From assembly GCA_027405735.1 (NCBI GenBank), contig JAPEHQ010000002.1:2492501-2556500 (forward strand): a DNA stretch of 64,000 bases, in the 5' to 3' direction. The position numbers and the translations under genes were made by a program. The notes under the pieces were generated by a model. That model was not told where the DNA came from and ran no database searches. It was given only the letters and a program-made list of their open reading frames with translations. The stretch comes from Mucor racemosus (Eukaryota; Mucoromycota; Mucoromycetes; Mucorales; Mucoraceae). This document shows, piece by piece, positions 445 through 46,810 of the stretch; the first letter of the stretch is position 1, and every line of letters begins with the position of its first letter.

Positions 445-1572
445 CTAAAATGCCCCGTTTTTGTTGCTCAATATTTCAACGAGAAAGCAAGCTGTGGGTC
501 GCACTACGGCCGAACTGTGCTGCACAAGATGATTTCGTTGTGCCCACCGAATATGGCTAAAAAGATAACAAGATGCAGATGGGCACAACAAAAGAAATTG
601 CACACGAGCACAACAGAAAGCCTGTATATCCAGTATTATAGATTCTGCCCACGTGCATAACATTAATCCCATGTGTGCATAATAGTAGAATTGCCCATAA
701 GCATATCATTATCCCTATTTATGCATAATAATAAAATCTGACCATGAGCATCGTGCCGTTCTCAAAACTCTATTGCATTTTCTACTGGAATGGGTTTTTA
801 AATTACATTTTCTTTTATTAATATAGATTATAGACAATACTACAATTTAATACGTTGTTGAAGTAGAGCAATACAGGCAACAGCCAATATATTTATGATC
901 ATCATCATTTGTAAATGTGTTTATAGCTATAATGTTTACAGCAACAATGGTTTTTGCTTGAGCATAAACTTAAATATATAACGCTTACTGCTTAAATTTA
1001 TATACAATCCAAATCTAAGATTATAGATGTTACTTTATCACACATAAAACATAAACAAATTAACCTTCTTTAAACTTATTATTTTAGTTTACGGTTATCA
1101 GTTGCAAAAAGATTTATTTTCAAGTATAGCTACGATCAAAACTATGGTTATTATACAATACATTAGATTATTCTTTTTTTTTTTTTTTGTGTTTCTATAT
1201 CATTTGAAATTTTATCACCACTTTTTTGGAACATGTCGTGGGTTTGTAACCAGTTCTAGCTTTTCATTGAGTAGATATAGGTAAATATCATTGCCTTCGA
1301 TTTGATCTGGTAATCAAGAAATACATCCAACAATACATTAGTAAATAATGATATTTGATCTTGGAATGCGGTTAAATGAAAATATCAGTCTCTAATATAG
1401 ACTGCTACCTATATTAAAAACATTAGTCCCTTATGTTAGCATGCGTATTCAGATAGAAAAAAATAATACCGACTTGATAGTCTGATATGATTTATCAAAC
1501 GATGAATATACTGTATCTTTGGACGAATATAAAAACAAAAAGAGAGAAACACACACTTAGAAAAGGATTTTC
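445..1572. repeat. R1 segmental repeat, copy 1
   Basis: This stretch matches about 41005-42745 in the same orientation. Shared landmarks are the GTGCTGCACAAGATGATTTC block (near 512 and 41028), the block around the word CATTAATCCC, and a T-run near 1173 and 42366. Copy 2 carries an extra piece of roughly 0.7 kb (about 41418-42095) that is absent here. In both copies R1 runs directly into the dynein-fragment region, so R1 plus that region moved as one segment. The short ORFs inside look like chance. Function unknown. Confidence 0.7.
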
Positions 1573-2797
1573 AAGGCTTTACATTATTTAGTGCAATTAA
1601 AACCTTGCTAAATTGCACATTTCAGCCAATGTAAAAGCAGCATTATTACAGCGCATCAACCCATAAACTAAACAAAATACAGTAGGCAATATCTAACTAT
1701 CATAGAAGCCTACATTTTTCTACCAGAAAAAACCGTTTGTCATATCATACATTCATTGAAAAGTTGCAAAAGCGAGCCCGTAGAGCGCTGCCGTAATTGA
1801 GCATAGCAAGATTGAACGGCTAAGTCTCTTATACTATGGTATATTTAAGTTTTAAATAAAAAAGCGTTTTTTTTTATAACTTTTCTTATATTTAACCACG
1901 TATGATCTGAAAATTCAGTTTTTGTAGCGGACATTTTCAGGGCTCATTTTATCCTTACCAACACTCATGATTTTGATCAAAAAACAGAAAAATCAAATTT
2001 TGATGCCAAAATCAACGTTTAAATATACTACATTGTGAGAGAAAATTGTGGCCATGGCTAATACACATCTTATAAAAACTTAATATTAAATGTTAATTAA
2101 TAAAAATTTGTACTTTTGTCCCAAAAACGGGTTTTTGGTTAAAGGATTTTCATGTAATATTTTGCAATAAAAAAGTTTGTTATTTTTTATTGAGCAAATA
2201 GAGCGCTAAAGTCTGTATATGTATATATTTTTTGTTTTTATAATTGGTGGTATAATTGACTCTAGATTTACAAAACTAGAAAAAAAATTTAAAAAATGTC
2301 AAAATTGATGATCTGGACAAGAATAATTTTCGAAATTAATATGCCGCTTATAAGCCTTGTAAGTCTTAAAAATAAGAGATTTTATAATACTTGAGAACTT
2401 TTTCAAGAATTTACAATGCTGTATCCACTTGATTCAAGCTTGTTACTGTAAATCTTTATACATGTTAATATTGCGTGGTAGTTTATTTGATAATGATATA
2501 TTCTTACGTTATAATTTTTGCGTTAGAGGTGTTTTACATTGAGTTTTATTAGTCTTACCTCTCCAATATCGTCATAAACATAAACATGGCCATCACTGGA
2601 AGGAACCTATTGCCGCCTTCATACCACCCTCTTTTTCCCAAGCCAATTTATTTAATGCTTTACAAGAACCAACATAAGTACTTACAAATGGCTCCTCGGT
2701 ATTTGAATTCAAATTCCATAAATCAAGTTGACTGGTTCCATCTACTACTACAGTAGTATCAAATGTATCATCAGCCCCCCTTATGATAAATGTCAAT
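1573..2797 (-). repeat. Left arm of a 1.2-kb inverted repeat (dynein-fragment region)
   Basis: The reverse complement of this stretch matches 4407-5633 with very few differences. One is a 3-base indel near the outer end. Positions pair with a constant sum (7203) across the dynein fragment, so the arms are collinear there. The arms are separated by about 1.6 kb. This arm continues into R1 on its outer side and lacks the LTR that bounds the other arm. Confidence 0.85.
2559..2797 (-). pseudogene. Dynein intermediate chain C-terminal exon fragment, copy 1
   Basis: The translated fragment contains LDLWNLN, then an ALNKLAW segment, then GHVYVYD. This is the order in the last WD40 repeats of cytoplasmic dynein intermediate chain, where family members read VDG..RLDLWNLNNDTE..., ALNR..W and IYDVGE. 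The exon looks bounded by a TTTTAG acceptor at 2798-2803 and a GTAAG donor at 2558, so intron edges are kept and the copy was made from DNA rather than spliced mRNA. A duplicated TTCC within the GSS codons shifts the frame, so it cannot encode the domain. The rest of the gene is absent. Confidence 0.75.
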
Positions 2798-2800
2798 CTA

Positions 2801-3096
2801 AAATCAGAAACATCCCACTGTCATTGTTATAAGCTATGAAAAGCTTGATTTTTAATAATACAGTAATTAAATAAAAACAAGATGATACTACTACTAGTAG
2901 CATTTGGTAAGTATTTAACGTCTACGTAAGTTTGCTAAAGTATGTTTAATGAGTCAAACATTTCAGTTTCATTTATGCAAAATCTTGCCTCATTCCTTAT
3001 ATAAATACTACAAGGAAATCATTACGTGATCCCTTGTAAATTTATCTGTCTTCTTACACCCCCTTTACTTTTATTTATTTACTAGTAAATATCTAA
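2801..3096. other. Spacer between the inverted arms, outer part
   Basis: AT-rich sequence that continues the putative intron upstream of the dynein exon on the minus strand. No gene seen. Confidence 0.4.
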
Positions 3097-3101
3097 ATTA
3101 C

Positions 3102-4406
3102 TGAGAGTTTATGGATACATACAATCTTATTTATAGAAAGAATAATAATAAAGACTAGTAACAACATTTATTATGGACAATGTAGGCTTTATTACTAGAA
3201 AAATTAATGGTAAAAGAAAGAACCAGGAGCTTCTAGGTCTTGGTTTAAAAGCTTATTTATAAGAATTGCATTTCAATATTTTAATATGAGTTAGAAATGG
3301 AATTGGCTGCTACAAAAAATAGCAATTAAACAAAAAAAGCGTTGCGAATACAATTATAACTCTTTGATATTTATTTAAGATATAAAGTAAAGCAAAGGTT
3401 TATGGATTACCATAGCCTTTGTGATATATATACTATTTTCTAATTCTATTAATAATACAGTAGTAAGTGCAGTAAATGACGATGTTACTTACTAAAATAA
3501 AAAAAATATAAAAATAAAAGCAGTAGAAATACAATTATAATCAGCTAAAGTTTTTATTACAAAAGATTTCTGAAGAGTTAAAATAATTGAAAGGTATGAG
3601 GGTATTTATAGTGATTTGGAGAACTTGGATACCATCAGACTTGAATGGATATATATTTAATAATCTTCCAGTTTTGAGTACATTGTTATTGATTTGATAT
3701 TTTAAGGGGTAAATTGTTTAGAGCATTGACCATAAGGGATTGTATGTCAAGTGTGACAATATCGACCTTTTGGGAAATGGTTGTTTTGTTTATTTTTGTT
3801 ATATCTATTTTATGTAACCTTGATTTTTAAGGGGTAATTTTTATATGCTTGAATCTTATTTATATTGATAGTGCAACTTCGATATAGATGAGTAGTTGAC
3901 TAAATTGATATCTTTGTTTATTATCATTATTGATTTGGATAGAATCCTGTTTTGATATATATGTCATTTGTGTAATTGATTGCGTCGTGATCAAGGGTGC
4001 TATCATCTACACGACATGTATGGTTCAAAAAAGGTATTTCATATTTTTAGCATGCGTTTGTTATTGTGTTCAATTGAAGCGTTTGTTTATTATTATTGTT
4101 GTTCACATTTCAAGAAGTGGCATCATATCTTATGAGCGACACTTGGAATTTAGGTTGTTTTATTTTTATCAAGCGTTTTTAGTATGTAATTCCACTGCAG
4201 TAAGATCTTGAAGCAAGATCTTCATGGTTTAGTTCCTAGTTTGGAAGTACCAGTGGTACAATTTGACATTTTAAAGTTTTGTGCGATTTAAAGTTATTAG
4301 ATCTTAGATGTTGACTAAGATCAATTGGGTTACTAAATAAACTTGGTATATGTAGTTTACTACATCGGCTTCAAAATTGGCTGTTTAATATCTTCGAAAA
4401 CCGATA
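3102..4406 (+). repeat. 5' LTR of the dynein-carrying element, interrupted
   Basis: The LTR halves are 3102-3308 and 4371-4406. Rejoined they match the other LTR copies at 5634-5876, 23874-24109 and, reversed, 43975-44210. The break repeats the bases GGCT on both sides. Confidence 0.75.
3309..4370. mobile_element. About 1.06-kb insertion splitting the 5' LTR
   Basis: This segment sits between GGCT copies at 3305-3308 and 4367-4370, which may be a 4-bp target duplication. Parts resemble the extra segment in R1 copy 2 (about 41418-42095), for example the ATACAATTATA word followed by GATTTCTGAAG-like sequence. Clear terminal inverted repeats and a convincing protein were not found; a 93-codon ORF at 3930-4211 looks random. 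The class is unknown. Confidence 0.45.
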
Positions 4407-4644
4407 TTGACATTTATCATAAGGGGGGCTGATGATACATTTGATACTACTGTAGTAGTAGATGGAACCAGTCAACTTGATTTATGGAATTTGAATTCAA
4501 ATACCGAGGAGCCATTTGTAAGTACTTATGTTGGTTCTTGTAAAGCATTAAATAAATTGGCTTGGGAAAAAGAGGGTGGTATGAAGGCGGCAATAGGTTC
4601 CTTCCAGTGATGGCCATGTTTATGTTTATGACGATATTGGAGAG
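4407..4644 (+). pseudogene. Dynein intermediate chain exon fragment, copy 2 (inside the LTR element)
   Basis: The translation of the first 67 codons is identical to copy 1, including the same TTCC duplication and frameshift. The fragment ends at a GTAAG donor at 4645. The identical lesion shows that the copies share a recent common source in which the fragment was already broken. Confidence 0.75.
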
Positions 4645-5633
4645 GTAAGACTAATAAAACTCAATGTAAAACACCTCTAACGCAAAAATTATAACGTAAG
4701 AATATATCATTATCAAATAAACTACCACGCAATATTAACATGTATAAAGATTTACAGTAACAAGCTTGAATCAAGTGGATACAGCATTGTAAATTCTTGA
4801 AAAAGTTCTCAAGTATTATAAAATCTCTTATTTTTAAGACTTACAAGGCTTATAAGCGGCATATTAATTTCGAAAATTATTCTTGTCCAGATCATCAATT
4901 TTGACATTTTTTAAATTTTTTTTCTAGTTTTGTAAATCTAGAGTCAATTATACCACCAATTATAAAAACAAAAAATATATACATATACAGACTTTAGCGC
5001 TCTATTTGCTCAATAAAAAATAACAAACTTTTTTATTGCAAAATATTACATGAAAATCCTTTAACCAAAAACCCGTTTTTGGGACAAAAGTACAAATTTT
5101 TATTAATTAACATTTAATATTAAGTTTTTATAAGATGTGTATTAGCCATGGCCACAATTTTCTCTCACAATGTAGTATATTTAAACGTTGATTTTGGCAT
5201 CAAAATTTGATTTTTCTGTTTTTTGATCAAAATCATGAGTGTTGGTAAGGATAAAATGAGCCCTGAAAATGTCCGCTACAAAAACTGAATTTTCAGATCA
5301 TACGTGGTTAAATATAAGAAAAGTTATAAAAAAAAACGCTTTTTTATTTAAAACTTAAATATACCATAGTATAAGAGACTTAGCCGTTCAATCTTGCTAT
5401 GCTCAATTACGGCAGCGCTCTACGGGCTCGCTTTTGCAACTTTTCAATGAATGTATGATATGACAAACGGTTTTTTCTGGTAGAAAAATGTAGGCTTCTA
5501 TGATAGTTAGATATTGCCTACTGTATTTTGTTTAGTTTATGGGTTGATGCGCTGTAATAATGCTGCTTTTACATTGGTTGAAATGTGCAATTTAGCAAGG
5601 TTTTAATTACACTAAATAATGTAGTAAAACCTT
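4407..5633 (+). repeat. Right arm of the 1.2-kb inverted repeat (internal region of the LTR element)
   Basis: This is the internal region of the LTR element and the reverse complement of 1573-2797. Downstream of the dynein exon it is about 1 kb of AT-rich sequence without a long reading frame. Confidence 0.85.
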
Positions 5634-5876
5634 TGAGAGTTTATGGATACATTATACATACAATCTTATTTACGGAAAGAATAATAATAAAGACTAGTAA
5701 CATTTATCATGGAGAACGTAGACTTTATTACTAAAAAAATTAATGGTAAAAGAAAGAACCAAGAGCTTCTAGGTCTTGGTTTAAAAGACTATTATATTTA
5801 TAAGAATTACATTTTAATATGAGTTAGAAATGGAATTGGCTTCAAAATTGGCTGTTTAATATTCTCGAAACCGACA
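5634..5876 (+). repeat. 3' LTR of the dynein-carrying element
   Basis: This 243-bp repeat runs TGAGAG...CCGACA and is followed at once by the ATTAC target duplication. Confidence 0.8.
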
Positions 5877-5881
5877 ATTAC

Positions 5882-7945
5882 AAATAAGAACACCAACCTT
5901 CATCAATCCAGTGATCACCAATTTATGATAACAATAATAATATCTATAAGCATATTATCCACCTTTGTTATTAGTCCAAAATTACAGATCATTACAATAT
6001 GCTTTTAAACCCGTTTAAAAATTCTGAAGCAACTCAACATCTTGGTCTTGTAATTTCTATCCATCAAAATGTTGCAATTTCCACAACACAATGAATGCAC
6101 CTTTTATCAATCTTGACCTCGACGATGTTACATTGGGTATGAGTTTTTTTGCCAGTTGTATTTTTCCTGGTTCATTAATATTCAATCATATTGAACGATG
6201 ATTTGTAACATTGCCAAAAAAAAAGAATAAATGCTTCAAGAGTTTTCTGCATATCAAATTATGCGATTTAGTATCAATGATTGCACTTAAAGTATGCTTT
6301 TTGAACCTATTGATGTTAATCAGAATAATTAGTAGCACTTTCATTCAAAGTAAGAAGCTTTGTTTTATACATTTACGTTCACCCATTCAAAAATGACATT
6401 GCATTTATTATCCGTTACATCAATCAACCAACTTTATTATGGTTCGGTATATTTGACAATTAAATGCCTAAATTACATTTGAGCCACCAGGTATGGCCAC
6501 AAAAATATCTCGTGCAGGTCGACGAAGAAGCATTATCACAATTTGGATCATTTTTTTGTGTTCATAGATCTGAGCTCTCTCACACATTTATAGACTTTTG
6601 CATGAACCATATCTCTATCTGTTCAATTTAGCTGAAACACATTGAACGCCAACATTGTACTTGATAAAACATCTTATTTTATTGCGTGTAATAAACACAA
6701 CTAATTTGATGCTAGTTTAGCATCAGCAGTTGAATCAGATAAATTTGAGATTAGACGACCCCTTTTGGTAATTTTACATCATACCATGAGCTGATAATGG
6801 ACCGTTATTATAAATACGCTAATCAGAGATAGTGAGTTAACTCTAATGGACGAACGAGGAGTTGATTAGCAGTATAAACGAAATATTAAAATTCAAATGT
6901 AGCAATTGAATGAGCAAGAAATGATAAACCATGTAAATTAGCATAATTAAATTGTTTCAAGAGTTTTGAACTGAATACGCCTTTAATTTTGACCTCCTAT
7001 AAAAATTGGTTTATTAGTTAAAGTCAATTAACAAGCTAATAAGTAATGATTATGGTGTATGTACCTTTGATAGTTGGTAGTGGTATACAAGACGACATCT
7101 CGTTTTTATCGTCTTGGCTGTTGGTCACTAAATAGAAACAAATATTTTTTAGAAACTAAATAAATTAACATGAGTTTATTCATTCATTCATTCATTCAAA
7201 TCAAGCCAATGCTATACATACTTTTATAATCACCAATTTTTCTGCAGGTAGATATTGACTTTAAACCAAAAAGCATTGATTATAACGTAGATGATGGGAC
7301 AGAATGACTAAGTCTTGGTGTTTTGGATGTTTTTTTTTTTATTATAAAAAATATTATAATGCGCCCTAACAAAAATTAGCAGTTAATCATCCATTTCCAA
7401 ATAAACAATAGGAAAAACACGTGCTGTAGTTGTACCTGCTACTTGATTTCCGTTTATAAAAAATATTGGTCTTTTTGTTGTAGTCTTAAATATAAATGAA
7501 AGAGCCGAGGAAAGTGTGGGGAAGGAAAAAGAAAAACGATTTTAAATCAGTTGATTTTGTGTGTTATAAACAGAAATTTACAAAGACATCAATACTTTTA
7601 GTGTTGTCAAACAGGTTGTTGTCGTTGTTCCCATTTGGTCTCCAAAAGAAGAACGTGGGCAGAACTCTTTCAAATCTCAGATTTCAAATTGATATATTTC
7701 GTCAATAAGGCAATTCTGTTGTATCAGAGTAACTCACATCTGCTTTAAATTATCAAATTATCTTCGTTATTAATTATATTATGACTGGTATTATACTTTA
7801 GTAAATTGACTAAAAAACCTTGATCTCGTTGCTCTGCTTATCTGGGCTGCCTGATCTACACAATTTTGTTATCCTACTACCCATCTGTGCAGATCATTAG
7901 GCCCATGGAAAGCATAGTTCGGCCGTAGTGACAATTTAAGTATAA
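5882..7945. other. Gene-poor AT-rich stretch
   Basis: No supported gene. Positions 6985-7080 match 45300-45400, next to the fourth dynein fragment, so at least part belongs to the same duplicated segment. A CATT microsatellite lies near 7177-7200. A short block near 7900-7935 is a reversed relic of R1. ORFs at 6211-6396 and 7496-7708 have no recognisable features. Confidence 0.5.
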
Positions 7946-20929: not shown

Positions 20930-21180
20930 TCGCAATCGAGCATTGCGAGCATAAGCAAGCGAGCGAGCCCTATGCTTGGGCTCGCTTGAATTGCGCTTTT
21001 TTCAGGGTATTACTTGCTTTGGCTTGCTTGATTAATTTTTTTTCAGCAATTTCCTGTCTGGCGCTCGATGAAAACATTGAAATCATGCTTGTATGCTTGC
21101 TTGAAATGCTTCAAATTGGAATAGGCTTGCTTGCATGTAAACCTGCTTGCGCTCGTTTGGGCTCGGTCATTTTGCGAGCG
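20930..21180. repeat. AAGC/GAGC-rich repeat at the left edge of the palindrome
   Basis: The stretch is dense in AAGCAAGCGAGC and its complement GCTTGGGCTCGC and is much more GC-rich than its surroundings. The same style of sequence lies at 23352-23605, 24682-24752 and 31389-31567. The end TTTTGCGAGCG is shared with the last two sites as an element terminus. Confidence 0.55.
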
Positions 21181-23391
21181 CTAGTTTTGGTAAAAGAGTA
21201 ATGTGCATAGATAGTAGAAAGTGATAATTATACAAGGAATGCTATCCTAGATTAGTTAGCTCATTCTTACAATAAGAATTACAATGCAACTCAAAAGGTT
21301 TACTATTATCTTAAAAGTTACGATAATAACCTGTGAACGTAATACAGAATTTGGAAAGAGGGTACACACATTATTTTTTTCGAGCAAAACCGAGGATATT
21401 CTTTTGTACACATTTTTGAGGACATCTCCACGAAAAATCAATATTTTGAAGAAATTTAAATTGGGGCCTAGAGAACTAAACGAGGTTGATGACGTGAATG
21501 TGAAAAAATTCTGCACAATTTAACGAATATTTTGGAATCTATTACGAAAATGTCAAAAAAATGGAATAAAAAAAAGATGTCCCGAGTTTTTTCAAACTCA
21601 GATATGTTAAAGAGAATTTTAAAACAAGTAAGTTTTATTATGAAAAAGTCTTTGGGTATCTTAATTTTTTGCAGAGATATTAAGGCTCAAAGTTTCAATT
21701 TTTCATATTTAAGCTGTAAAAACCAAAGTTGGAAGAAAAAATTATCGGTTTTTTCGAATTTATTCGACAGATGCTATAGTGATAGTCTGTAGACAATTAA
21801 TTGTTATTTGTAGCCCTTAAAAATCTGCATCAAATCAAACTAACTTTAATAAGAGGTTTTTATTATTTTGTTATGAAAATCGCTCAAAATCGCGATTTTT
21901 GGATGAGGGTTGGGGTCAAAAAACAAGAGTACACCTTCAAATCTTCATTACCCCTTGAAAAATTAATTTTTTTGAGAAAACTAAAAACAGATCTATATAT
22001 ATTGCTGCTTGCAATTATTTTTATGGAACTAACATTTTGTTTGATAATTTACTGGAAAATGATATTAATAATTTATACGTTTTTGGTGTGTTTTATGGGG
22101 TAAATTCTTTGAATTTTTATTTTGGCTCTATTTGTATCTAACAAATAATATGCCTATAATATAGATAAAAAACTTTTATTATAATTGCAAGTAATGTTTA
22201 CTTAATAAAATCAATAGGTATGCTTGTTTTTCTGATATTCCTATAATTTTTTGAACGGCTATATCTCCGCAAAAAAAATAGCTAAAAATATATGAATATC
22301 AGAAAAACAAGCATACCTATTGATTTTATTAAGTAAACATTACTTGCAATTATAATAAAAGTTTTTTATCTATATTATAGGCATATTATTTGTTAGATAC
22401 AAATAGAGCCAAAATAAAAATTCAAAGAATTTACCCCATAAAACACACCAAAAACGTATAAATTATTAATATCATTTTCCAGTAAATTATCAAACAAAAT
22501 GTTAGTTCCATAAAAATAATTGCAAGCAGCAATATATATAGATCTGTTTTTAGTTTTCTCAAAAAAATTAATTTTTCAAGGGGTAATGAAGATTTGAAGG
22601 TGTACTCTTGTTTTTTGACCCCAACCCTCATCCAAAAATCGCGATTTTGAGCGATTTTCATAACAAAATAATAAAAACCTCTTATTAAAGTTAGTTTGAT
22701 TTGATGCAGATTTTTAAGGGCTACAAATAACAATTAATTGTCTACAGACTATCACTATAGCATCTGTCGAATAAATTCGAAAAAACCGATAATTTTTTCT
22801 TCCAACTTTGGTTTTTACAGCTTAAATATGAAAAATTGAAACTTTGAGCCTTAATATCTCTGCAAAAAATTAAGATACCCAAAGACTTTTTCATAATAAA
22901 ACTTACTTGTTTTAAAATTCTCTTTAACATATCTGAGTTTGAAAAAACTCGGGACATCTTTTTTTTATTCCATTTTTTTGACATTTTCGTAATAGATTCC
23001 AAAATATTCGTTAAATTGTGCAGAATTTTTTCACATTCACGTCATCAACCTCGTTTAGTTCTCTAGGCCCCAATTTAAATTTCTTCAAAATATTGATTTT
23101 TCGTGGAGATGTCCTCAAAAATGTGTACAAAAGAATATCCTCGGTTTTGCTCGAAAAAAATAATGTGTGTACCCTCTTTCCAAATTCTGTATTACGTTCA
23201 CAGGTTATTATCGTAACTTTTAAGATAATAGTAAACCTTTTGAGTTGCATTGTAATTCTTATTGTAAGAATGAGCTAACTAATCTAGGATAGCATTCCTT
23301 GTATAATTATCACTTTCTACTATCTATGCACATTACTCTTTTACCAAAACTAGCGCTCGCAAAATGACCGAGCCCAAACGAGTGCAAGCAG
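21143..23391. repeat. Near-perfect palindrome, 1.1-kb arms with a 53-bp spacer
   Basis: Arm 21143-22240 is the reverse complement of 22294-23391. Positions pair with a constant sum of 44534, so no indel occurs in about 1.1 kb. ORFs in both arms (for example 21801-22103 and 22431-22733) translate identically. I saw one mismatch, near 21151/23383. The inner part of each arm resembles family B. A truncated arm lies at 62054-62500. The spacer is 22241-22293. Confidence 0.9.
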
Positions 23392-23605
23392 TTTCAGCAA
23401 ACATTTGCCGAGTCTAAAATATTGGGAAGTTACTCAAGCAAGCACAAGCCTAAGCAACGGCTCACCGAGCAGTTATATATCGAGCATTCTCAGTTTTGAA
23501 AGAAAGTAAGAAAACATAAATCAAGCAATTATCTAATTTTTCAAAACGTCAGGCAAGTCGAACACGAGCATATAAGCAAGCGAGCAAATCCGAGTGCAAG
23601 CACAA
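23352..23605. repeat. AAGC-rich element, uninterrupted copy
   Basis: This copy runs from TAGCGCTCGC to about CAAGCACAAAC. Its reverse complement is split into two pieces at 24682-24752 and 31389-31567, so it serves as the empty-site reference for the nested insertion there. Confidence 0.65.
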
Positions 23606-23873: not shown

Positions 23874-24109
23874 TGAGAGTTTATGGATACATACAATCTT
23901 ATTTATAGATAGAAAGAATAATAATAAAGACTAGTAACATTTATCATGGAGAACGTAGGATTTATTACTAGAAAAACTAATGGTAAAAGAAAGAACCAAG
24001 AGCTTCTAGGTCTTGGTTTAAAAGATTATTTATAAGAATTACATTTCAATATGAGTTAGAAATGGAATTGGCTTCAAAATTGGCTGTTTAATATCCTCGA
24101 AAACCGACA
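23874..24109 (+). repeat. Solo LTR of the dynein-carrying family
   Basis: 236 bp, TGAGAG...CCGACA, matching the LTRs at 3102, 5634 and 43975. The flanks CTTTC and CTCTC differ by one base and may be a mutated 5-bp target duplication. Its solo state supports an LTR origin for this repeat. Confidence 0.7.
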
Positions 24110-25170: not shown

Positions 25171-25415
25171 TGAAATGTCAAAACGGTCTTAAGAAATAAT
25201 CTTGCCAAAATATTACACTTTTTATTAACAATACATCCAGAGGATGTATTTATATACTTTTCATTATAACTATTACACAGAATTACTATCTAAGAACATT
25301 ACACCAATTTACTAAGACGCATGTGAATCAACGTGTACACCTGTTGATTTACTATAATACCGAATATTGACTGCGACCTTGAATGTGCGACCTAGGATAT
25401 GATATTGACATAACA
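25171..25415 (-). repeat. 3' LTR of the Ty3/gypsy element
   Basis: On the minus strand it reads TGTTATGTC...TTGACATTTCA, with TG and CA ends. It is identical by eye to the other LTR. Confidence 0.95.
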
Positions 25416-25720
25416 CCATCCCACACCAACATAAGCATTATGTGATAAAAGATAGTGATAGTTGTTGTAGTTTGTTGTAATTGTAATTTGTGTATAAGTT
25501 GGTTGACATAACGTGAAAAAAAGAAAAAATAAAAAAAATAAAAACGGCAATATTGTTGATATATGATAATGTACTTCTTGTTGATTGATCTTCGTTGTAC
25601 AATAATATAAACTTCAAATTTAGATATTCAGGGGCAACCATTAAAAACCTCACATTCCAAAAACCCAGTGGGATCAAAAAGGAAATGTTAAAAGGAAAAG
25701 GTATAGCCTTCATCTAACAT

Positions 25721-28700
25721 TTAAATCGTATCTTCTGCTAATAATCTTTCACGCTTCTTCTTGGACTTCTCCTCGCGTGTAGCAATCTTTCTTGTATTAA
25801 TTGATTTAGGAGCTTGCTTTCCCTTACCATTAGATTGCGTATTAGCATCTACTTTCGCCCAATAATGTTTAATAACATCAGGAGAATCAAATGATGCTGG
25901 TGGTTCCCAAGAATCATGATCTTCTGTGAAATTCTTCCATCTTACTAAATATTCGTAATTGGGTGGAGTACCTCTATGCTTTATAATAGCTTGTACTTCA
26001 TACACATCTGAGTTATCTTCCTTTGCATCATTCGTGCTGATCAACTTGATCTGTTGTGTAGGTACATCTCTAGCTAAGAATGTATCAGTTTTATCAGTAA
26101 GAATATAGCTTCCATTTTTAGTTATTCCATGTATATAAAATGGGCCTTCATAGTTAGGATCAGTTTTCCTATTCTTATTTTCTATATTCTTGATCATTAC
26201 AGTAGGTCCAATTGGATAAGGTTTCTCCAAGATTCTATGTCTCTTTCTAAAGTAACTACTATTCTTATCCTGTGTCTTTAGTATTTGGTCTCTAATTGCT
26301 GGAACAATAATTCTATCAATTAAATCGAGCTTCTTTTTAAATGCTTCCACATCGATTTCTCTTTCATGAAGTGTAGGTTTATCTCCTCGATAATCCTTAA
26401 ATTCATTAGGTGCTCTATGAAACATTACCATGAATGGCATCATCCCATGCAGTCTAGATCTATGTACATTTAAACTTAATGCTGTTCCATTAAGGTACAA
26501 ATCCCAATCTTTGCTACGACCTTCCAACATCTTCATAATTATTGTTTTTGCAGACTTTACTGCAGCTTCACAGCAACTATTACCTTGGGGCGTAAATGGT
26601 AAACTTGCTCTATTCTCAACCTCAGCATGTTTAAGTATCTTTTCAAGTAATTTATTATGGAATTCTGCACCTCGATCATGACCAACGATACGTGGGTAGC
26701 CGAACAATGAAAAGATAGATACCAATTCCTTTGCAACAGTAGTAGCTGATTTATCTGGAATTGCACGTAAGATAATAAATCTCGAGAATAGATCTAGCAC
26801 TACTAATATAAAATTATTTCCCCTTGGTGTAGTGCAATCAAATCCACCTAGATCAAATACAACATGATCCATTATCCCTTCAGGAGCTTCTTGCTTTGGT
26901 GGATGGTAGACATGCTTAGCTAAATTGAACTGTCTGCATTTATGGCAATTTGATATATATTTCGTAATATCTTCCCTTAAGCCTTTCCAATGCATATTCA
27001 AATCTTGGTGTATAACTTGCTCCATTGCATGAATACCGAAATGCCCAAGTAAATGTGTTTTTTCTAATATATTTTGTTTTTCTTCATCACTTGCAGGCGT
27101 TTCATAAACATCTAAATGACTAACGCAGAATAATAACTCTTCGTTCTTATTCTTCAATTTGTTTACATACGCTGTCAATTTAGCGTTGTTAAAAAGATCA
27201 GAGGTTTCCCTCGGAATGATTACTTTTGGTGATCCGGAGATAACGGAAGTATCGCATGCAATAAGGTTATCATGTGCTTCCTTAAGTTTATCTTTCCCCT
27301 TATTCACAACATGTAATTTCCTCTTTTTCTTTTCTTCTACTACATTATCTACTACATGTTTTCTCTTTCCTTTAACCTTTGTATCAATATCTTGTTTAAC
27401 TAAATTCTTTTCATTAACATGATTTTTAATTAAACGCTTATCACCACTCTCCACCAGCGTATTGTATGGCCAGAAAAGACGCGATAAGGTATCAGCCAAG
27501 ATATTGTTAATACCACTACAAAAGGTAATATCAAAATCCATTTCAAAAATTGTATCATAATAGTTCTCAACCATTCGATCCAATTTAGGTTGCGAATGTA
27601 GAAATAAAATACCACGATTATCCACAAAGAGATGGAATCGTCTTCCATACAACCATTGATGAAACTTTTTAAATGCATAGACAACTGCAGCTAATTCTCG
27701 TTTGGAACTTCCCCATCTTTGCTCTGATGGACTCAAACTGCGTGCAATAAAACCAAGATATTTTATTTTATTACCAATAACTTGATACATTGCAGCGCCA
27801 ATTGCATAGGCAGAACTATCTGTAACAACACAGATTGGATAATGTAAGTTAGGCACACTCAACACTGCTGAGCTGACTAATAATTCTTGCAATTGCTTCA
27901 TTAATTTAGTATGTTCTGGTGTCCATACTTTAGTAATCTCAGGTGCATTTCTCAATTTATCTAGTGGTGCTGTCAACATCGACAAGCGTGGCAAATTAGA
28001 ACGAAAAAAGTTAATCAATCCTAAACGTGAACTCAATTCACGGCTACTTTTAACGGTAGGTTCCCAATCCAAAACATTTGAAACCTTTCGAGGATCTAAT
28101 GCTAAACCCTCACTAGATAAGCAGAAACCCAATATATAAATGCTCTTTTGCGCAATATGCAATTTTTCAGTATTTATACGTAAGTTTGCTTTAGTCAAGC
28201 GATCGATAACGATTTTAACTAGTTCTGTATGCTTTTTCAGGTCGTTTTCAGTATGTATAGTGACATCATCTATAAAGTGAGTGGTAGTATCACTGATATC
28301 AGCAAACAAATTAGAAAGTATTTTTTGTGCGTGCGATGAGACCATAGTCAATCCGTACGGGCAGTGAGAGAAGGACCACGTCAATCCCTCCATATCAGTG
28401 AACGTCAAATACGATCTTGACGATCTGGATATTTTAAATGCATGGAAACATTGCGATAAGTCAATGACAGTATAGAGCGAATGCTTCGACATCTTACGAT
28501 GCAAATCACTTATCAAGGGCAATGGGAAACGTTCAAGTTTCTCAGGATCTAATGCATTATTTATCAAACGACAATCAATTACCACACGGTGCTCTTTTCC
28601 AGTGTATTCACCATCACTATTTTTCTTTCGTACAGTAAAAATTGGAGAATTATGAGGTGTATTAGGTTTTGCTCTTTTAATCACACCATTTTCTCGCCAT

Positions 28701-30931: not shown

Positions 30932-30996
30932 TTTAAAAAGTAAAATAGTATGAGTTGTTTAGAGTATAATAGAAGTTTTTAGGTAGATTAAAAAAA

Positions 30997-31241
30997 TGAA
31001 ATGTCAAAACGGTCTTAAGAAATAATCTTGCCAAAATATTACACTTTTTATTAACAATACATCCAGAGGATGTATTTATATACTTTTCATTATAACTATT
31101 ACACAGAATTACTATCTAAGAACATTACACCAATTTACTAAGACGCATGTGAATCAACGTGTACACCTGTTGATTTACTATAATACCGAATATTGACTGC
31201 GACCTTGAATGTGCGACCTAGGATATGATATTGACATAACA
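30997..31241 (-). repeat. 5' LTR of the Ty3/gypsy element
   Basis: 245 bp, the partner of 25171-25415. It lies 65 bp upstream of the Gag-Pol start on the minus strand. Promoter elements were not resolved. Confidence 0.95.
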
Positions 31242-31639
31242 TCCACGCTTCCAAAACATATAAACACCCTAAATCCTGATGTCGTTCGAGATGGATTCAT
31301 TATCTTTTTTACCTACAATATACTCAATAAATATATCTAGTTTTAACTTTATTTTCTAGTTATTCATTGTGTATATTTAACCATAATGATTGATTTATGT
31401 TTTCTTGCTTGCTTTCAAAACTGAGAGTGCAGTGTTCGATATACAACTGCTCGACGAGCCGTTGCTTAGGCTTGTGCTTGCTTGAGTATCTTTCAAATAT
31501 TTTAGACTCGGCAAATGCTTGCTAAAACTGCTTGCGCTCGCTTGGGCTCGATCATTTTGCGAACGCTATCTATGGCTATGGATGTCTGGTCTAAAATAAA
31601 TGTGTCAATGTACCAAAAAATAAAAGTCTATTCAGACCT

Positions 31640-33300
31640 AAATCTGATTGTAAAAAATTAAGCATGCAAATCGATGTGTTAATTTTTTGTATTTACAAGG
31701 TAGATCTAACTGAAAACTATTCCGCATTTTTTGTGTCAGGGAAAAATGATAATTTTTTGTCGAGATAATCAAAATAATAGTTTGCGTTACAGCTTACGGC
31801 CTGTGATAACTGGGTTCCAAAATTTATTCAACAAATCGATCAAAAAACAATCGAAAAAACAAATTCGTTTAATGGCTCATGAACTGCAATATAAGTTGAA
31901 CCAGCGCACTGAATGTTTTTTGTACAATTTTTAATCCTGCATCTAAATACACAAAATTAAAAAAATATTTCACATTAAATTATGCGTAAAATGCAATTGA
32001 AGTTTTTGAGGTTTTTTGAATATATTCTTCACTTTTTATAAGCATATTTTAAATATAAGTAGTAAATATAATGCGCAAAAAAATTATCTATCGACCGAGC
32101 CATTGCGGAGCCTTCTAGCTGCATTACTTATAGAGAAAAATGAGATTTTAGGCCATTTTTTTAAAAATTCAGAATTTGGGATGAGGGTATACAAGGGGAA
32201 AATTGAAGCTAGAATCAAGGATTAAGTATAAAAGACGAGCCGAGCCTAGGACGAGCTTGACCAAAGCTCGCCACAACGAGCCGAGCTTTGTATCACTCGA
32301 GCTCGAGCCGAGCTTTAATAAAAGCTCGTTTGACAAAGACGAGTTTTTGACTTTTTTTTAAAAAGCTCGTTTGAGAAAGACGAGCTTTTGACTTCTTTTC
32401 AAAAAGTTCAAATTTAAATAATAATTAGTAAATGCTATGACATTATTACTTTAGATAATTGTCAATTGACATTCATAAGTTTGCTTTACTTTAGATATTT
32501 GTCACTGGAAAGGTAAAATAAAGCTCGCATTGAGATGATGAGTTTTAGTCGCTGCATAAAAAAGCTCGTTTGGGGTAAACGAGCTCTAGTCACGCGCAAA
32601 AAAAAGCTCGTCGAGGTTGAACGAGCTTTTTTGTAAGCTCGTCTAACTTTAACGAGCCTTGAGAAAAGCTCGGCTGCATAAAAAAGGCTCGGCTCGTTTA
32701 ATATCACTATCAAGGATATCTCTTTATACACATTTTTGAGGATATCTCCACGAAAAATCAATATTTTAAAAAAAATTAAATTGGGTTCGAGAGAACCCAA
32801 CAAGCTTGATGACATGAATATAAAAAAAGCGTTACTCAATTTAACAAACATTTTGAAATCTACTACAAAAATGTCAAAAAAATGAAAAAAAAATAAAAAG
32901 TGCTCAGAATTTTTTTAAACTAATATATGTTATATAGCGCGTTAAAATAAGTAAGTTTTATTGTAAAAAATTGTTAGTGTATCTTAATTTTTCGTAGAGA
33001 TATGAAGCCTCAAAGTTTTAATTTTACGCAGTGAAATACGCGTAAACATCTGAAACATTAGCATTGAAAAAGGTATACCAACTGCAAAAAATAGGATATT
33101 TTTGAATACTCGTTTTCAGATTAAATTTAAACATCCCAGGTACGTTGGCATACAATTTTTTCTTGATGTTATTTAGTACAAAAAAAAGCTGAGCAGGGAT
33201 GAAAAGTGGGACCCAGTTTTCAAGGAAAAAGCAGTAAATTCTACCTATTTTTGAGTTTTTCGTGAGATTTAAAATAATTTTATGAACATGTAGCATAATA
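31640..33300 (+). repeat. Family B interspersed repeat, copy 2
   Basis: This matches 7950-9330 in order, apart from a 486-bp insertion at 32223-32708. The conserved CCACGAAAAATCAATATTTT block is at about 32748. The ORF at 32486-32851 on the minus strand is a shadow of the repeat and insertion. Confidence 0.75.
32223..32708. mobile_element. 486-bp MITE-like element rich in AGCTCG hairpins
   Basis: The flanks carry a 9-bp duplication, ATCAAGGAT, at 32214-32222 and 32709-32717. Comparison with the other family B copies shows the uninterrupted target. The ends are imperfect inverted repeats sharing ACGAGCCGAGCC after an AT-rich lead. Inside are several AAAAGCTCG...CGAGCTTTT pairs that can form hairpins. 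There is no coding capacity. A 9-bp duplication is typical of Mutator-like elements, but no transposase is present to confirm the class. Confidence 0.65.
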
Positions 33301-41004: not shown

Positions 41005-42745
41005 CTAGTACATATCACTGCGGTCGACCTGTGCTGCACAAGATGATTTCGTTGTGCCCAGGTGGGCTGCATACTATAGCCTGAGATGCTGTGCCCACTG
41101 AATATGGCTAAAAAGATAACAATATTCACATGGGCACAGCAAAAGAAACTGCACACGAGCACAACGCTAACCCTGTATGTGCAGAATTATATATTCTGTC
41201 CGTGTGCATAACATTAATCCCATGTATGCATAATGAGATGATCGTATGGGCACAAATTTGTTTGTACATGAGCATCGTGACGTTCTCAAAATTCCATTGC
41301 ATTTTTTTACTGGAATGGGTTTTTAAATTACATTTGTTTTTATTAATATAAATTATAGACAATACAATTCAATGCGTTGCTGATGTAGAGCAATACATGC
41401 AAGAACCAATATATTTACGCTTGCAATAAAATTGAAGTAATTTTATGAAAATGAAAAATAAAATAAAAAATAAAGGCGTTAATAAATACAATTATAGTCT
41501 TTCCACGGTTTTATTGTGATTCAAAGAAATCTGAAGAAAAAGAATGATATCTTCATAAAGTATGCTATATTTATAGGAATTGTAAAATAGTGGATGTTTG
41601 TGTGTTGATGCCTAATTGCCTATTTTACAGGTATTCAATCATAATGTCTTTTATTGACATTCTTTTATAAGATACTTGGTTGAGATTTTGATACTTTGTT
41701 TGATATGATAGAATATTATTAGATGGATGTTGATCTTTCAACATTCCAGTTATAATTTAAAATGCAACTGAGCTTATTTTTATGGATGTGATTCCTTATC
41801 TAGAATTACTGCAACTGCGATTTTATGAACAGGAGTTTTGGAATATATTATTAATGCAAAATAAGTACAGCTTTATATCATCGGTGTCGTGTTGTAGAAG
41901 GTTGTATTTTGATCAGGAATACTTTCTTTTACAGGCACCAGCAATATAGAGTTTCCTCGTTATGCTTATTGGGATCTGATTGGAACTCAGTCCTTATGGA
42001 GCGAGATTCAGGTACGAATCGAGATAAGTTATTTTTCTGAAATGACAATGGCGACTTTGGTCTATAAAAGGTGTCATTTCATTGCAACACTTATCATCGT
42101 TTGTAAATATGTTTATAGCTATAATGTCTGCAGGAACAATGATTTTTGCTCGAGCATAAACTTAAATATATAACTCTTACTGCTTAAATTTATATGCTAG
42201 TCAAATGTAATATTATATATGTTACTTTATCACACATAAAATTTAAACAAATTAACCTTATTTAAACTAACTATTTTAGTTTACAATTGTCAGCGGTAAA
42301 AAGATTTGTTTTCAAGTATACAATAGCTACGATCAAAACTATGGTTATTAGACAAAACATTAGATTTTTTTTTTTTTTTTTTTTTTGCTTCTATATCATT
42401 TGAAATTTTAATATTTTTCTGAAACATTTCGTGGGTTTGTAACTAGTTCTAACTTTTCATTAATTAGATATAAATATCATTGCCTTCGATTTGATTTGGT
42501 AATCAAGAAATACGTCCAACAATACAGTAGTAAATAATGATATCTGATCCTAAAATGCGGTTAAATGAAAATATCAGTCTCCAATATAACGACTGCTACC
42601 TATATTAAGAACATTAGTCCCTTATGATAGAATGCGTATTCAGATGAAAGAAAAGAATACCAGCTTGATAGTCTGATATCCCTTATCAAACGGTGAATAT
42701 ATCCTTGGAATATGAATACAAAAAGAGAGAAACAACACACGTATA
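41005..42745. repeat. R1 segmental repeat, copy 2
   Basis: Matches 445-1572. It contains an extra segment (about 41418-42095) that is absent from copy 1 and related to the insertion at 3309-4370. ORFs at 41126-41362 and 41130-41351 overlap on opposite strands and look like chance. Confidence 0.7.
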
Positions 42746-43974
42746 CAAGGATTTTCAAGGCTTTACATTATTTAGCGCAATTAAAACCCTGCTAAATTTC
42801 ACATTTCAACCAATGTAAAAATAGCATTACAGCGCTCAGCGCATCAACCCATAAACTAAACAAAATAGGCAATATCTGTTATCATGAAAACATACATTTT
42901 TTTACCAGAAAAACCGTCTGTGATATCATACATTCATTAAAAAATTGCAAAAGTGAGCCCGTAGAGCGACGCCATAATTGAGCGTAGCAAGATCGAACGG
43001 CTATATCCCTTATACTATAGTATATATCTCAGTTTTAAATAAAAATGCGTTTTTTTTCAACTTTTCTTATATTTAACCATGTATGGTCTGAAAATTCAGA
43101 CTTTGTAGCGGACATTTTTTTCGGGGCCCATTTTATCCTTACTAACACTCGTGATTTTGATCTAAAAACAGAAAAATCAGATTTTGATACCAAAAGCGAC
43201 GTTTAAATATACTACAATGTGAGAGAAAATTGTAGCCATAGCTAATACATATTTTATAAAAGCTTAATATTAAATATTTAGTAATGAAATTTTGTACTTT
43301 TGATCCAAAAACGATTTTTTAGTTAAAAGATTTCCATGTAATATTTCGCAATAAAAATATTTGGTATTTTTTATTCAGCAAATAGAGCGCTAAATTCTGT
43401 ATATGTGTATATTTTTTATCTTTATAATTGGTAGTATAATTAACTCTAGATTTGCAAAATCAGAAAAAAAAAATTTAAAAAATGTCAAAATTGATGATCT
43501 GGACAAGAATAATTTTTGAAATTAATATTCCGCTTATAAGCCTTGTAAATCTTAAAATTAAGAGATTTTATAATACTTGAGAATGTTTTCAAGAATTTAC
43601 GATGCTTTACCGACTTGATTCAAGCTTATTGCTGTAAATCTTTATACATGTTAATATTGTGCGGTAGTTTATTTGATGATAATATATTCTTACGTTATAA
43701 TTATTTTGTTAGAGATGATTTACATTGAGTTTTAGTCTTATTTCTCCAACATTATTATAAACATAAACATGGCCATCACTGGAACCTATTATTGCCGCCT
43801 TTTTATTACCCCCTTTGTCCCAAGCCAATTTATTCAATGCTTTACTAGAACCAACATAAGTACTTAAAAACGGCTCTTCGGTATTTGCATTCAAATTCCA
43901 TAAAATAAATTGAGTGGTTTCATCTACAGTAGTATCAAACGTGTCATTAGTCCCCCCCTTATGATAAATGTCAA
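42746..43974 (-). repeat. Dynein-fragment region, copy A
   Basis: Matches 1573-2797 and the reverse complement of 4407-5633, but with clearly more differences than those two have from each other. It joins an LTR at 43975 and R1 at its other end. Confidence 0.75.
43743..43974 (-). pseudogene. Dynein intermediate chain exon fragment, copy A
   Basis: Reads LNKLAW and then GSSDGHVYVY in frame, without the TTCC duplication of copies 1 and 2. It therefore shows the older form of the fragment. The splice donor has decayed (ATAAG in place of GTAAG), and the rest of the gene is absent. Confidence 0.7.
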
Positions 43975-44210
43975 TGTCGGTTTTCGAGGATATTAAACAG
44001 CCAATTTTGAAGCCAATTCCATTTCTAACTCATATTGAAATGTAATTTTTATAAATAGTCTTTTAAACCAAGACCTAGAAGCTCTTGGTTCTTTCTTTTA
44101 CCATTAGTTTTTCTAGTAATAAAGCGTACGTTCTCCATGATAAATGTTACTAGTCTTTATTATTATTCTTTCTATCTATAAATAAGATTGTATGTATCCA
44201 TAAACTCTCA
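43975..44210 (-). repeat. LTR of the dynein-carrying family between two internal copies
   Basis: 236 bp, reversed, CCGACA end at 43975 and TGAGAG start at 44210. It sits between region copies A and B, with the same two junctions as the complete element at 3102-5876. This gives an internal-LTR-internal tandem. Confidence 0.75.
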
Positions 44211-45294
44211 AAGGCTTTACAGTATCTAGCGCAATTAAAACCTTGCTAAAATGCTCATTTCAGTCAATGTAAAAGTAACATTACAGCGCATAAATCATGA
44301 ACCAAACAAAGTAAGCAATATCTGTTATTATCATAGAAGAAATATACATTTTCCTACTAGAAAAACCGTCTGTCATATCATACACTCATTAAAAAATTGC
44401 AAAAGCGAGCCCGTAGAGCGACGCCGTAATTGAGCATAGCAAGATGGAATGGCTAAGTCTCTTATACTATGGCGTTTCTAAGTTTTAAATAAAAAAGCGG
44501 TTTTTTTTATAACTTTTCTTATATTTAGCCACGTATGGTCTGAAAATTCAGACTTTGTAGCGGACATTTTCGGGGCCCATTTTATCCTTACCAACACTCA
44601 TGATTTGGATCAAAAAACAGAAAAATCAAATTTTGATACCAAAATCAACGTTTAAATATACTACATTGTGAGAGAAAATTGTAGCCATAGCTAATACACA
44701 CTTTATAAAAGCTTAATATTAAATGTTAAGTAATGAAATTTTGTACTTTTGATCCAAAAACGGTTTTTTAGTTAAAGGATTTCCATGTAATATTTTGCAA
44801 TAAAGAAGTTTGTTATTTTTTATTGAGCAAATAGAGCACTAAATTCTGCATATGTGTATATTTTTTGTTTTTATAATTGGTAGTATAATTGACTCTAGAT
44901 TTACAAAACTAGAAAAAAAAATTCAGAAAATGTCAAAATTGATGATCTGGACAAGAATAATTTTGAAATTAATATTCCGCTTATAAGCCTTGTAAATCTT
45001 AAAAATAAGAGATTTTATAATACTTGAGAACTTTTTCAGGGATTAATGATGCTTTACCCACTTGACTCAAGCTTATTACTATAAATCTTTATGCATGTTA
45101 ATATTTTGTGGTAGTTTATTTGATAATAATATATTCTTACGTTATAATTATTTCGTTAAAAGTGATTTACATTGAGTTTTAGTCTTACCCCTCCAATATC
45201 ATAAACATAAACATGGCCATCACTGGGATCTATTGCCACCTTTTTACCCTCCTCTTTGTCCCAAGCTAATTTATTCAACGCTTTACCAGGACAA
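44211..45294 (-). repeat. Dynein-fragment region, copy B (truncated)
   Basis: A fourth copy of the region, ending inside the dynein exon at about 45294, where sequence like that at 6985-7080 begins. Confidence 0.7.
45189..45294 (-). pseudogene. Dynein intermediate chain exon fragment, copy B
   Basis: Reads GKALNKLAWDKEEGKKVAI and then SDGHVYVYDIGG before a GTAAG donor. It is truncated at its 5' side. Confidence 0.65.
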
Positions 45295-46810
45295 ACTTAC
45301 TTTTGACCTATAAAAATTGATTTATTAGTAAAATCAATTATTAATATATAACAAGCTAACAAGTAATAATTATGGTGTACCTTTGATAGTTGGTAATTGC
45401 CAACGTGCCCCTTTCTTGCTGCGCATTTCTATTGAAAGCAATGTTAAATTTGTTCTCCATGAATATGGATTCAAGTAAGCCCTAACTTTGCAGATATTTA
45501 AAGTGTTATATTTGATGAATATATGCTTCAGGTTTCAGCTTCCACGGATCATTATTGTGCATTTGGTAAGTTTGAACAACAAGCTGCTTACCCGCAATTT
45601 ATACCTACCAAGGTCAGTAAACACGCTAATTCTCGCTGAATATGGTTTCAAATGAGCTCCCCTTGCAATGGAAGGTACATCTAGGTTTTATCTACAGAAT
45701 TACAAAAGGTTTAGCTTTCCCGAGTTGTTCTGAAGATGGAGAAATGGAGACGAACACTTTTTTCAATTATTTTATACGTGTTGTCTCAGATATTTTTCAA
45801 AAAATTTATAAAATCAAATAATGGTTCGAAATTGAATTTTAAAGTTGCACTTAATGCACAATGAATATAAAAATAACATATCTTAATTTCATTATCTAAC
45901 AGTTGTTTTTGAAGGAGCTGAGCACATATATTTGAGTAAAACTACCTCTTTTTCCACTTAAAAAAACAAATAAAACAACTGGAAAAAATGCTTGTGACCA
46001 ATGAATATTGACTCAAATGGGCTGAAAGTTTTAGAATATATACTACAGCTGCAATAGTATCCAGGATCAAATATTTTAGCATTTCATTAATTTGCTGGTA
46101 AATTGTATTATTGGGTTGATTTGTTATTATGATCTCACAAAGCTGTGAAGTTGGTAGAGTTATGTAATAGACAATAAAAGCACAATCATTAATTATAATT
46201 ATCAGTAAAATGTAGGATGCTTATTATATTAGTAATTATATGATTTATCGAAAGATAAACGTATGAAATTATTCAAATAAAAAAGTACCGTTTATTATGA
46301 GCTTATAGAAAGGGTTTGTATACTATATAATTGAATGAGTATATTAAATATGAATGGTAATGTAATTAGAACGAGCATATGGATATTGCGTGAATATACT
46401 GGAATCATAATTATATGCTTCAATAGTAGCATGATAATAGACGCATGGAATGTAGCATTGTTTGATTTGCGTGTTAAACATCATGGTTTGACAGATATCT
46501 AAATTAGTAATTCAGTAATTCCTACTTCCTAATTCTGATAGATGAATATATATAGATATATGCAATGTTTTGTAAAACCAAATGTGTATAATCAATTTGG
46601 ATTTGAAGGCATATATATTTTTAAAAACCATTTAAAATCGCAGAATTCGATTACATGCATGTCAGTTATTTGCATCTTATGATATATTTTATAAGATGGA
46701 TGGTATACATAAAAATGTTATATATATAAAGCTTTGCTCTGTTTCTTTTATTGAAAATACAGATTTTCATAGCTTTCTCAAGCCAACAGAAATAATTAGC
46801 TATAGTTTAA
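45295..46810. other. Gene-poor stretch, possible exon relics
   Basis: Positions 45300-45400 match 6985-7080. Positions 45420-45620 contain short protein-like frames (for example TDHYCAFGKFEQQAAYPQF at about 45547-45603) separated by intron-like sequence. They are too short to name. The remainder is AT-rich. Confidence 0.35.

What the first reader, a model, noticed from the sequence alone, without database searches (positions are those of the whole stretch)
3102..5876. LTR-bounded element whose internal region is a captured dynein intermediate chain exon
The element has direct 244-bp repeats, TG/CA ends and a 5-bp ATTAC target duplication, yet no gag or pol. Its internal region starts at the LTR edge with a WD40 exon of dynein intermediate chain in sense orientation. 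The exon still ends at a GTAAG donor, so capture was probably from DNA, not spliced mRNA. Gene capture by LTR elements is known in plants; I know of no described case with a dynein chain in this fungal group.
Basis: partly seen in the sequence, partly recalled or inferred. Interest (0 to 1): 0.75.

Follow-up and report, generated by a model that had tools for sequence, protein, structure and literature searches.

The report
Chimeric LTR relic holding repeat DNA
In a Mucor-like fungus, an old jumping-gene remnant brackets a piece of a very common repeat that had itself earlier picked up part of a dynein motor gene, so the jumping gene probably did not take the exon straight from the gene.

Summary
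The anatomy is real: two 243-bp LTRs (the left one split by nested insertions), TG/CA ends, ATTAC target duplication, no gag/pol, and inside a decayed dynein intermediate chain WD40 exon with its GTAAG donor. The reading changes. The 1.23-kb internal region is a fragment of an abundant, apparently non-coding dispersed repeat of at least 3.9 kb that carries the exon across the genome (41 copies piled up; 122 exon matches besides the gene). The repeat matches the genome's own gene at 84% and runs about 25 bp into its intron, so the repeat took the exon from DNA. The LTR|internal junction was found in three places, all within 240 kb of one contig; only the given locus is shown to be LTR-internal-LTR with a TSD. 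Best reading: one old chimeric insertion, perhaps a template switch at a 4-bp microhomology, later rearranged locally; a pure recombination origin is nearly as likely. The internal region was recently homogenised with the neighbouring inverted repeat copy (99.8% identical; the LTRs 93%). Nearby inverted copies of this repeat are near-identical elsewhere too; nearby direct copies are not.

The parts
3097..3101 (.). 5' copy of target site duplication ATTAC
3102..3308 (+). left LTR, first part (TG start); 207 bp
3309..4370 (.). nested insertions in the left LTR, GGCT on both sides: a ~330-bp element (3306-3467 + 4201-4364) holding a further ~733-bp insertion (about 3468-4200)
   Evidence: C22:381478-381806 and C14:1321445-1321764 carry the two outer pieces joined; C5:2057088-2057816 carries the inner one
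4371..4406 (+). left LTR, last part; ends CCGATA (CCGACA in other copies)
4407..5633 (+). internal region: piece of the abundant dynein-exon repeat (consensus from about 1555 to about 2757 of 3888), bounded by TTGAC and CCTT
4458..4644 (+). recognisable part of a decayed dynein intermediate chain WD40 exon (5' part missing or unrecognisable, +4 frameshift)
4645..4649 (+). retained splice donor GTAAG; homology to the gene continues about 25 bp into the intron
5634..5876 (+). right LTR (CA end), 243 bp
5877..5881 (.). 3' copy of target site duplication ATTAC
5998..7467 (-). host copy of the dynein-exon repeat, first part (consensus 1-1416)
501..2947 (-). host copy of the dynein-exon repeat, second part (consensus 1409-3886, with short gaps)
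1580..2797 (-). segment of the host repeat 99.84% identical in inverted orientation to 4406-5623 (2 mismatches in 1218): homogenisation partner
43975..44210 (-). LTR without TSD between two direct copies of the internal piece, junctions GCCTT|LTR|TTGAC
42091..43974 (-). internal piece and rightward continuation of the repeat after that LTR
44211..45299 (-). internal piece before that LTR
23874..24109 (+). solo LTR of the same family, flanks CTTTC/CTCTC (4 of 5)

Best explanation
Three layers. (1) Shown: a dispersed, apparently non-coding repeat of at least 3.9 kb carries the WD40-coding exon of the cytoplasmic dynein intermediate chain gene together with a little of the following intron, at many places in the genome, so it took the exon from DNA. 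(2) Inferred: a family of LTR elements known here mainly as solo LTRs produced one chimeric copy in which the LTRs bracket a 1.23-kb piece of that repeat. The 5' junction lies in an ATTG shared by the LTR/internal boundary of a full-length relative (CCGACATTGTCC) and the repeat (TTTTAGATTGACAT), as a misplaced strand transfer during reverse transcription would leave; the 3' junction is exactly at the LTR start. The chimera integrated at ATTAC inside a copy of the same repeat. (3) Afterwards (inferred from the structures): homologous recombination in one 240-kb stretch made loci in which one LTR lies between two internal pieces, nested insertions hit the left LTR, and gene conversion with the host repeat's inverted copy homogenised nearly the whole internal region. 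The unit is a fossil; no coding function is proposed.
For: Repeat independent of the LTR: flanking sequence continues on both sides of the 1.2-kb unit in most copies listed; 124 exon matches, two of them the gene. DNA-level capture. LTR family real: 14 of 27 full-length LTRs have perfect 5-bp TSDs and 4 more have 4/5; L045 has two near-identical LTRs sharing outer TSD GAATA around 4.7 kb, longest ORF 89 aa. Unit insertion: ATTAC on both sides. Microhomology: read. Local spread: 3 of 3 LTR|internal and 4 of 4 internal|LTR junctions lie within C2:2344631-2583100. Conversion: internal vs host arm 99.84%, with shared private indels and all differences in the last 56 bp before the right LTR, while the LTRs differ by 7% and the median pair of units by 10.65%.
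Against: No canonical primer binding site (TGG) or polypurine tract is visible at the internal edges, nor a TGG at the start of L045's internal region (by reading). Only one complete copy with a TSD is known. The two LTRs share only one derived site, so they could be two unrelated LTRs brought together. The clustering of all junctions on one contig fits recombination at least as well. The ATTG argument was made after the fact and rests on L045: its junction was found in 3 places, two of which read CACTG instead. Which arm overwrote the other is not settled: trees put the pair weakly (0.745) with the other LTR-linked copies of the window.
Confidence: 0.48

Rival explanations
1. Recombination composite: the LTR-internal-LTR arrangement was never one retrotransposed molecule. 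LTR-LTR ectopic recombination between solo LTRs sitting in different repeat copies made internal-LTR-internal; a circle or conversion tract carrying internal+LTR then recombined into a solo LTR that already had the ATTAC duplication.
For: The two other loci with both junctions are internal-LTR-internal without TSD. LTRs with mismatched flanks, as LTR-LTR recombination would leave, occur elsewhere (L046, L049, L062, L063). Near C2:2583085 the dynein-side flank CCTT precedes an LTR start, and an LTR end 0.24 kb on is followed by the L045-type internal sequence (the stretch between was not read). All junctions are on one contig.
Against: Needs more steps, and neither founder insertion was found (0 matches each with up to 3 mismatches). 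Does not by itself explain the ATTG microhomology.
Confidence: 0.4
2. Gene-capturing LTR element as first proposed: the LTR element took the exon directly from the dynein gene and the dispersed copies derive from it.
For: LTR, TSD and exon are all present.
Against: Of the 41 other unit copies piled up, two adjoin an LTR at these junctions, both at window 42091-45299; in most of the others homology continues past both places where the LTRs sit. The repeat has its own right end near consensus 3885 in 24 of 29 copies that reach it; 5 share some further sequence.
Confidence: 0.04
3. Assembly artefact: the inverted 1.2-kb copy, or the whole arrangement, is a foldback or mis-join.
For: Near-identical inverted arms can come from foldback reads; raw reads could not be seen.
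Against: The identity stops at the left LTR edge and about 56 bp before the right LTR, not at an arbitrary point, and 38 kb away a second locus has the same junctions at ordinary divergence.
Confidence: 0.04
4. The 243-bp repeat is not an LTR but a short non-autonomous DNA element with TG/CA ends.
For: Most copies looked at are solitary.
Against: 5-bp TSDs, no terminal inverted repeat seen by eye, and L045: two same-orientation copies around 4.7 kb sharing one outer TSD.
Confidence: 0.04

Closest known systems
TRIMs carrying gene fragments in plants (PMC4717578, passages read)
   Same: Short LTR element, no retrotransposon proteins, 5-bp TSD, host gene fragment inside.
   Different: Here about 1.71 kb without the nested insertions, above their 1,500-bp limit; the gene fragment comes second-hand from a dispersed repeat; one complete copy; a fungus.
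Complex LTR elements sharing an LTR, by template switching or heterologous recombination (PMC1950507, abstract read)
   Same: One LTR shared between two internal pieces; the same two competing mechanisms.
   Different: The foreign partner here is a dispersed repeat with a host exon, not a second LTR element.
Transduplication of histone H3 by hAT transposons in fungi (PMC6710886 abstract; PMC3538342 passages)
   Same: A housekeeping gene piece captured and amplified to many copies by a mobile element, the original kept.
   Different: Here a dynein intermediate chain exon in a Mucor-like fungus; the carrier repeat has no recognised transposase and its class is not settled.
Homogenisation of inverted-repeat arms (template switching in yeast, PMC8604942 abstract; palindrome gene conversion, e.g. 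PMC3723533, search listing only)
   Same: Inverted arms become identical while the surroundings diverge.
   Different: Here kilobase arms belonging to an old dispersed repeat, in a fungus, with nearby direct copies not homogenised.

Membership tests
LTR retrotransposon (non-autonomous) | Direct terminal repeats with TG...CA ends | tested here: met
LTR retrotransposon (non-autonomous) | Target site duplication of 4-6 bp | tested here: met
   ATTAC; 14 of 27 full-length family LTRs with perfect 5-bp TSDs
LTR retrotransposon (non-autonomous) | Primer binding site and polypurine tract at the internal edges | tested here: not met
   By reading only: TTGACATTTATC after the left LTR has no TGG; GTAAAACCTT before the right LTR is not polypurine. 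L045 also lacks TGG at the start of its internal region.
LTR retrotransposon (non-autonomous) | More than one dispersed copy with this internal region and its own TSD | tested here: not met
   junction patterns (up to 3 mismatches) on one contig only, one copy shown with a TSD; at C2:2372793 the LTR is followed by GTATC but no LTR was seen in the 321 bases at the expected 5' distance
TRIM (criteria of PMC4717578) | Element under 1,500 bp | tested here: not met
   about 1.71 kb without, 2.77 kb with the nested insertions
TRIM (criteria of PMC4717578) | No retrotransposon proteins; complete copy plus solo LTR with different TSDs | tested here: met
Gene capture (transduplication) by the dispersed repeat | Piece of an identifiable host gene inside a multi-copy repeat, the gene itself elsewhere | tested here: met
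   (gene read in part, 2.2 kb)
Gene capture (transduplication) by the dispersed repeat | Carrier belongs to a known mobile element class | tested here: inconclusive
   longest stop-free stretch 84 aa in the 3,888-bp consensus, right end near 3885, left end not reached; target duplications of the repeat not determined

The most novel reading that the evidence does not exclude
A non-autonomous LTR element in a Mucor-like fungus mobilised a piece of an unrelated dispersed repeat with a second-hand host exon by a misplaced strand transfer at a 4-bp microhomology, showing that LTR elements can re-transduce gene fragments that other repeats have already amplified.
Probability: 0.45. Interest if true: 0.45.

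Novelty: new member of a known kind. Interest (0 to 1): 0.33.

Why it matters
It gives a likely fungal case of two-step gene capture: a dispersed repeat amplifies a dynein exon, and an LTR element later brackets a piece of it. It also shows how a single LTR/TSD locus can be misread as direct capture, because later conversion made its internal region look unlike its age. The wider observation, that nearby inverted copies of an old repeat are near-identical while nearby direct copies are not, would make inverted-repeat conversion measurable in an early-diverging fungus.

Tried and rejected
Splicing as the source of the left junction: an LTR followed by a GT donor and spliced to TTTTAG|ATTGAC would give CCGACAATTGAC; observed is CCGACATTGAC, one base short, so rejected (by reading). 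Founder insertions of the LTR at the two edges of the internal piece: searched as junction patterns, none found. A 12-codon deletion inside the exon, which I first read by eye, is not borne out by alignment: the exon's 5' part simply does not align clearly. PF11540 as a probe for the dynein gene found nothing here or in the control genomes, so it is uninformative. Rfam found nothing in the window at gathering scores. Literature: a search for dynein intermediate chain with transposable element, gene capture and fungi listed 15 of 40 papers, none of the 15 holding the dynein term; one on LTR elements and gene fragments in fungi listed 11 of 11; dynein intermediate chain with Mucor and repeat gave one unrelated paper. 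Only open-licence papers are held, so this does not show that nothing is in print.

Full report
What is in the sequence. The two direct repeats, TG/CA ends, ATTAC duplication and lack of gag/pol are confirmed. The right LTR is 5634-5876. The left LTR is in two parts, 3102-3308 and about 4371-4406, split at GGCT by about 1.06 kb of nested insertions: elsewhere in the genome the outer pieces of that insert (3306-3467 and 4201-4364) lie side by side, and the inner 0.73 kb occurs alone. The LTRs are 93.0% identical over 230 aligned columns and share one derived site.

The dynein part. A conceptual, frameshift-bridged peptide of the exon matches cytoplasmic dynein 1 intermediate chain 2 at E 3.1e-12. 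The genome's own gene was found on contig C4 with a typed animal-type probe (61% and 57% identity in two pieces) and 2.2 kb of it were read. The consensus of the repeat matches this gene at 83.7% over 209 bp, through the exon end and about 25 bp into the intron. Upstream of the TVDG codons the match fades, so the exon's first part is missing or unrecognisable, and homology begins some 50 bp inside the LTR edge. The window copy has a further +4 insertion with a TGA in frame.

The internal region is a piece of a much commoner repeat. Of 3,572 first-look candidates for the whole element 40 were scored, giving 52 matching places. In most of the copies lined up the flanks continue in register on both sides of the 1.2-kb unit (upstream ...CTGATTTTAG|ATTGAC, downstream AAGCCTT|GAAAATCC); exceptions include L013, L017, L018, L025, L026, L034 and L043, in which one side is changed or cut off. 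A pile-up of 41 copies gives a 3,888-bp consensus whose longest stop-free stretch is 84 aa. Of 29 copies that reach consensus 3885, 24 go on with unlike sequence and 5 share a further stretch; leftwards the repeat runs on beyond position 1. The typed dynein probe matched 124 places, two of them the gene. The given locus lies inside a copy of this repeat on the minus strand, 7467-5998 and 2947-501.

The LTR family. Of 513 first-look candidates 40 were scored, all at 96% or more. A 5'-end pattern finds 125 places. Of 27 full-length LTRs in the held loci and window, 14 have perfect 5-bp TSDs and 4 have 4/5; the other 9 are the L045 pair (which shares an outer GAATA), two in L046, one each in L049, L062 and L063, and the two internal-LTR-internal loci. 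The two LTRs of the given unit, which do not align at full length, and one fragment in L052 were left out of that count. L045 is a 5,158-bp element with near-identical LTRs and no ORF above 89 aa; its LTR/internal junction occurs in 3 places.

LTR and dynein together. The LTR|internal junction occurs 3 times and the internal|LTR junction 4 times with up to 3 mismatches, all on C2 between 2,344,631 and 2,583,100. Besides the given unit, two loci have one LTR between two internal pieces, with the same junctions GCCTT|LTR|TTGAC and no TSD (window 42091-45299 and L069). The right-hand internal piece of L069 is closest, among copies held, to that of the window locus (91.9%). At C2:2372793 the LTR is followed by GTATC, near C2:2583085 by the L045-type internal sequence.

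How it formed. The left junction reads CCGACATTGACAT in both other loci (CCGATATTGACAT here). In L045 the LTR continues CCGACATTGTCC; in the repeat the sequence is TTTTAGATTGACAT. The chimera switches within the shared ATTG. Together with the ATTAC duplication this favours one chimeric molecule that integrated, for instance by misplaced strand transfer during reverse transcription. Against it stand the lack of visible PBS and PPT, the clustering on one contig, and that the ATTG argument is after the fact and rests on few L045-type junctions, two of three reading CACTG. A composite made by LTR-LTR and internal-internal recombination is almost as good; its founder insertions were not found.

Later homogenisation. 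4406-5623 and 1580-2797 differ at 2 of 1,218 positions and share private indels; the differences (5578, 5609, 5629 and a 3-bp gap) lie in the last 56 bp before the right LTR. Among 52 unit copies the median pairwise identity is 89.35%, and the only 6 pairs above 95% are all inverted neighbours. For stretches of this repeat of at least 500 bp within 15 kb, 7 of 7 inverted pairs are 99.7-99.97% identical and 9 of 9 direct pairs 84.6-91.5%; five of the inverted pairs lie within one held locus or the window, and the other two (L025/L026, L036/L037) are the only cross-locus pairs compared, taken because their scores were nearly equal. The 500-bp limit was set after seeing the data. Results the other way: shorter inverted pairs (L058 363 bp at 83%, pieces in L011 at 80-89%, L046 142 bp at 87%) and pairs tens of kb apart in the window are not homogenised; of other sequences, one inverted pair in the window (31640-32220 and 40345-40924) is only 75% identical, inverted pairs in L045 are 96% and 86%, and two direct pairs (L045, L048) are 88-89%. 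In one search three inverted neighbours have scores 0, 5 and 9 bits apart, one direct pair 52 bits. For L025/L026 the identity stops where each independently truncated copy ends, which fits conversion and not duplication; in L011 it runs beyond the repeat's end, which fits an inverted duplication. Direct pairs that recombine tend to be deleted, which may explain the asymmetry (inference). The direction of conversion here is open: trees put the pair with the other LTR-linked copies of the window, weakly (0.745; the 240-bp tree agrees, without support values shown).

Organism. The window's alternative oxidase is 89% identical to one of Mucor plumbeus and 100% to an unnamed record, so the genome is from a Mucor or close relative.

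Papers. Abstracts read: PMC6710886, PMC1950507, PMC8604942. Passages read: PMC4717578, PMC3538342, PMC13317346. PMC3723533 was seen in a search listing only.

Noticed in passing
L011, L012, L024, L025/L026, L036/L037, L046 and window 1580-2797 / 4406-5623: Nearby inverted copies of the dynein-exon repeat are 99.7-99.97% identical (7 of 7 of at least 500 bp within 15 kb), nearby direct copies only 84.6-91.5% (9 of 9). Gene conversion, inverted duplication or, for some, assembly foldbacks.
   Followed up: partly
window 21128-23403: A near-perfect 2.3-kb palindrome (98.6% over 2,283 aligned bases), parts of which recur at 62053-62498.
   Followed up: no
window 25171-31245 (minus): An apparently intact LTR retrotransposon: 249-bp terminal repeats 99.6% identical and one 1,745-aa open frame that looks like gag-pol (judged by eye, not searched). 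Its LTRs did not match the 243-bp family in the window self-comparison.
   Followed up: no
G000 C16:608560, C15:51644, C23:252201, C1:6319000, C1:6106899: Five places carry 85-89 residues of the dynein exon region without stops (48-54% to the typed probe; the gene 57%), perhaps older or selected copies.
   Followed up: no
L045:1543-6700 (C1): A 5.2-kb LTR element with near-identical LTRs, TSD GAATA and no ORF above 89 aa: a recent non-autonomous element of unknown partner. A related junction lies in an inverted pair at C2:2580544 and C2:2583311.
   Followed up: partly
proteins P0131, P0133, P0134, P0135, P0137: Short unnamed peptides from public assemblies look, by eye, like decayed dynein exons, some reading into the intron, so similar exon copies may exist in other fungi.
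   Followed up: no
window 62953-63312: A fragment that looks like a LINE-type reverse transcriptase (judged by eye from the translation).
   Followed up: no
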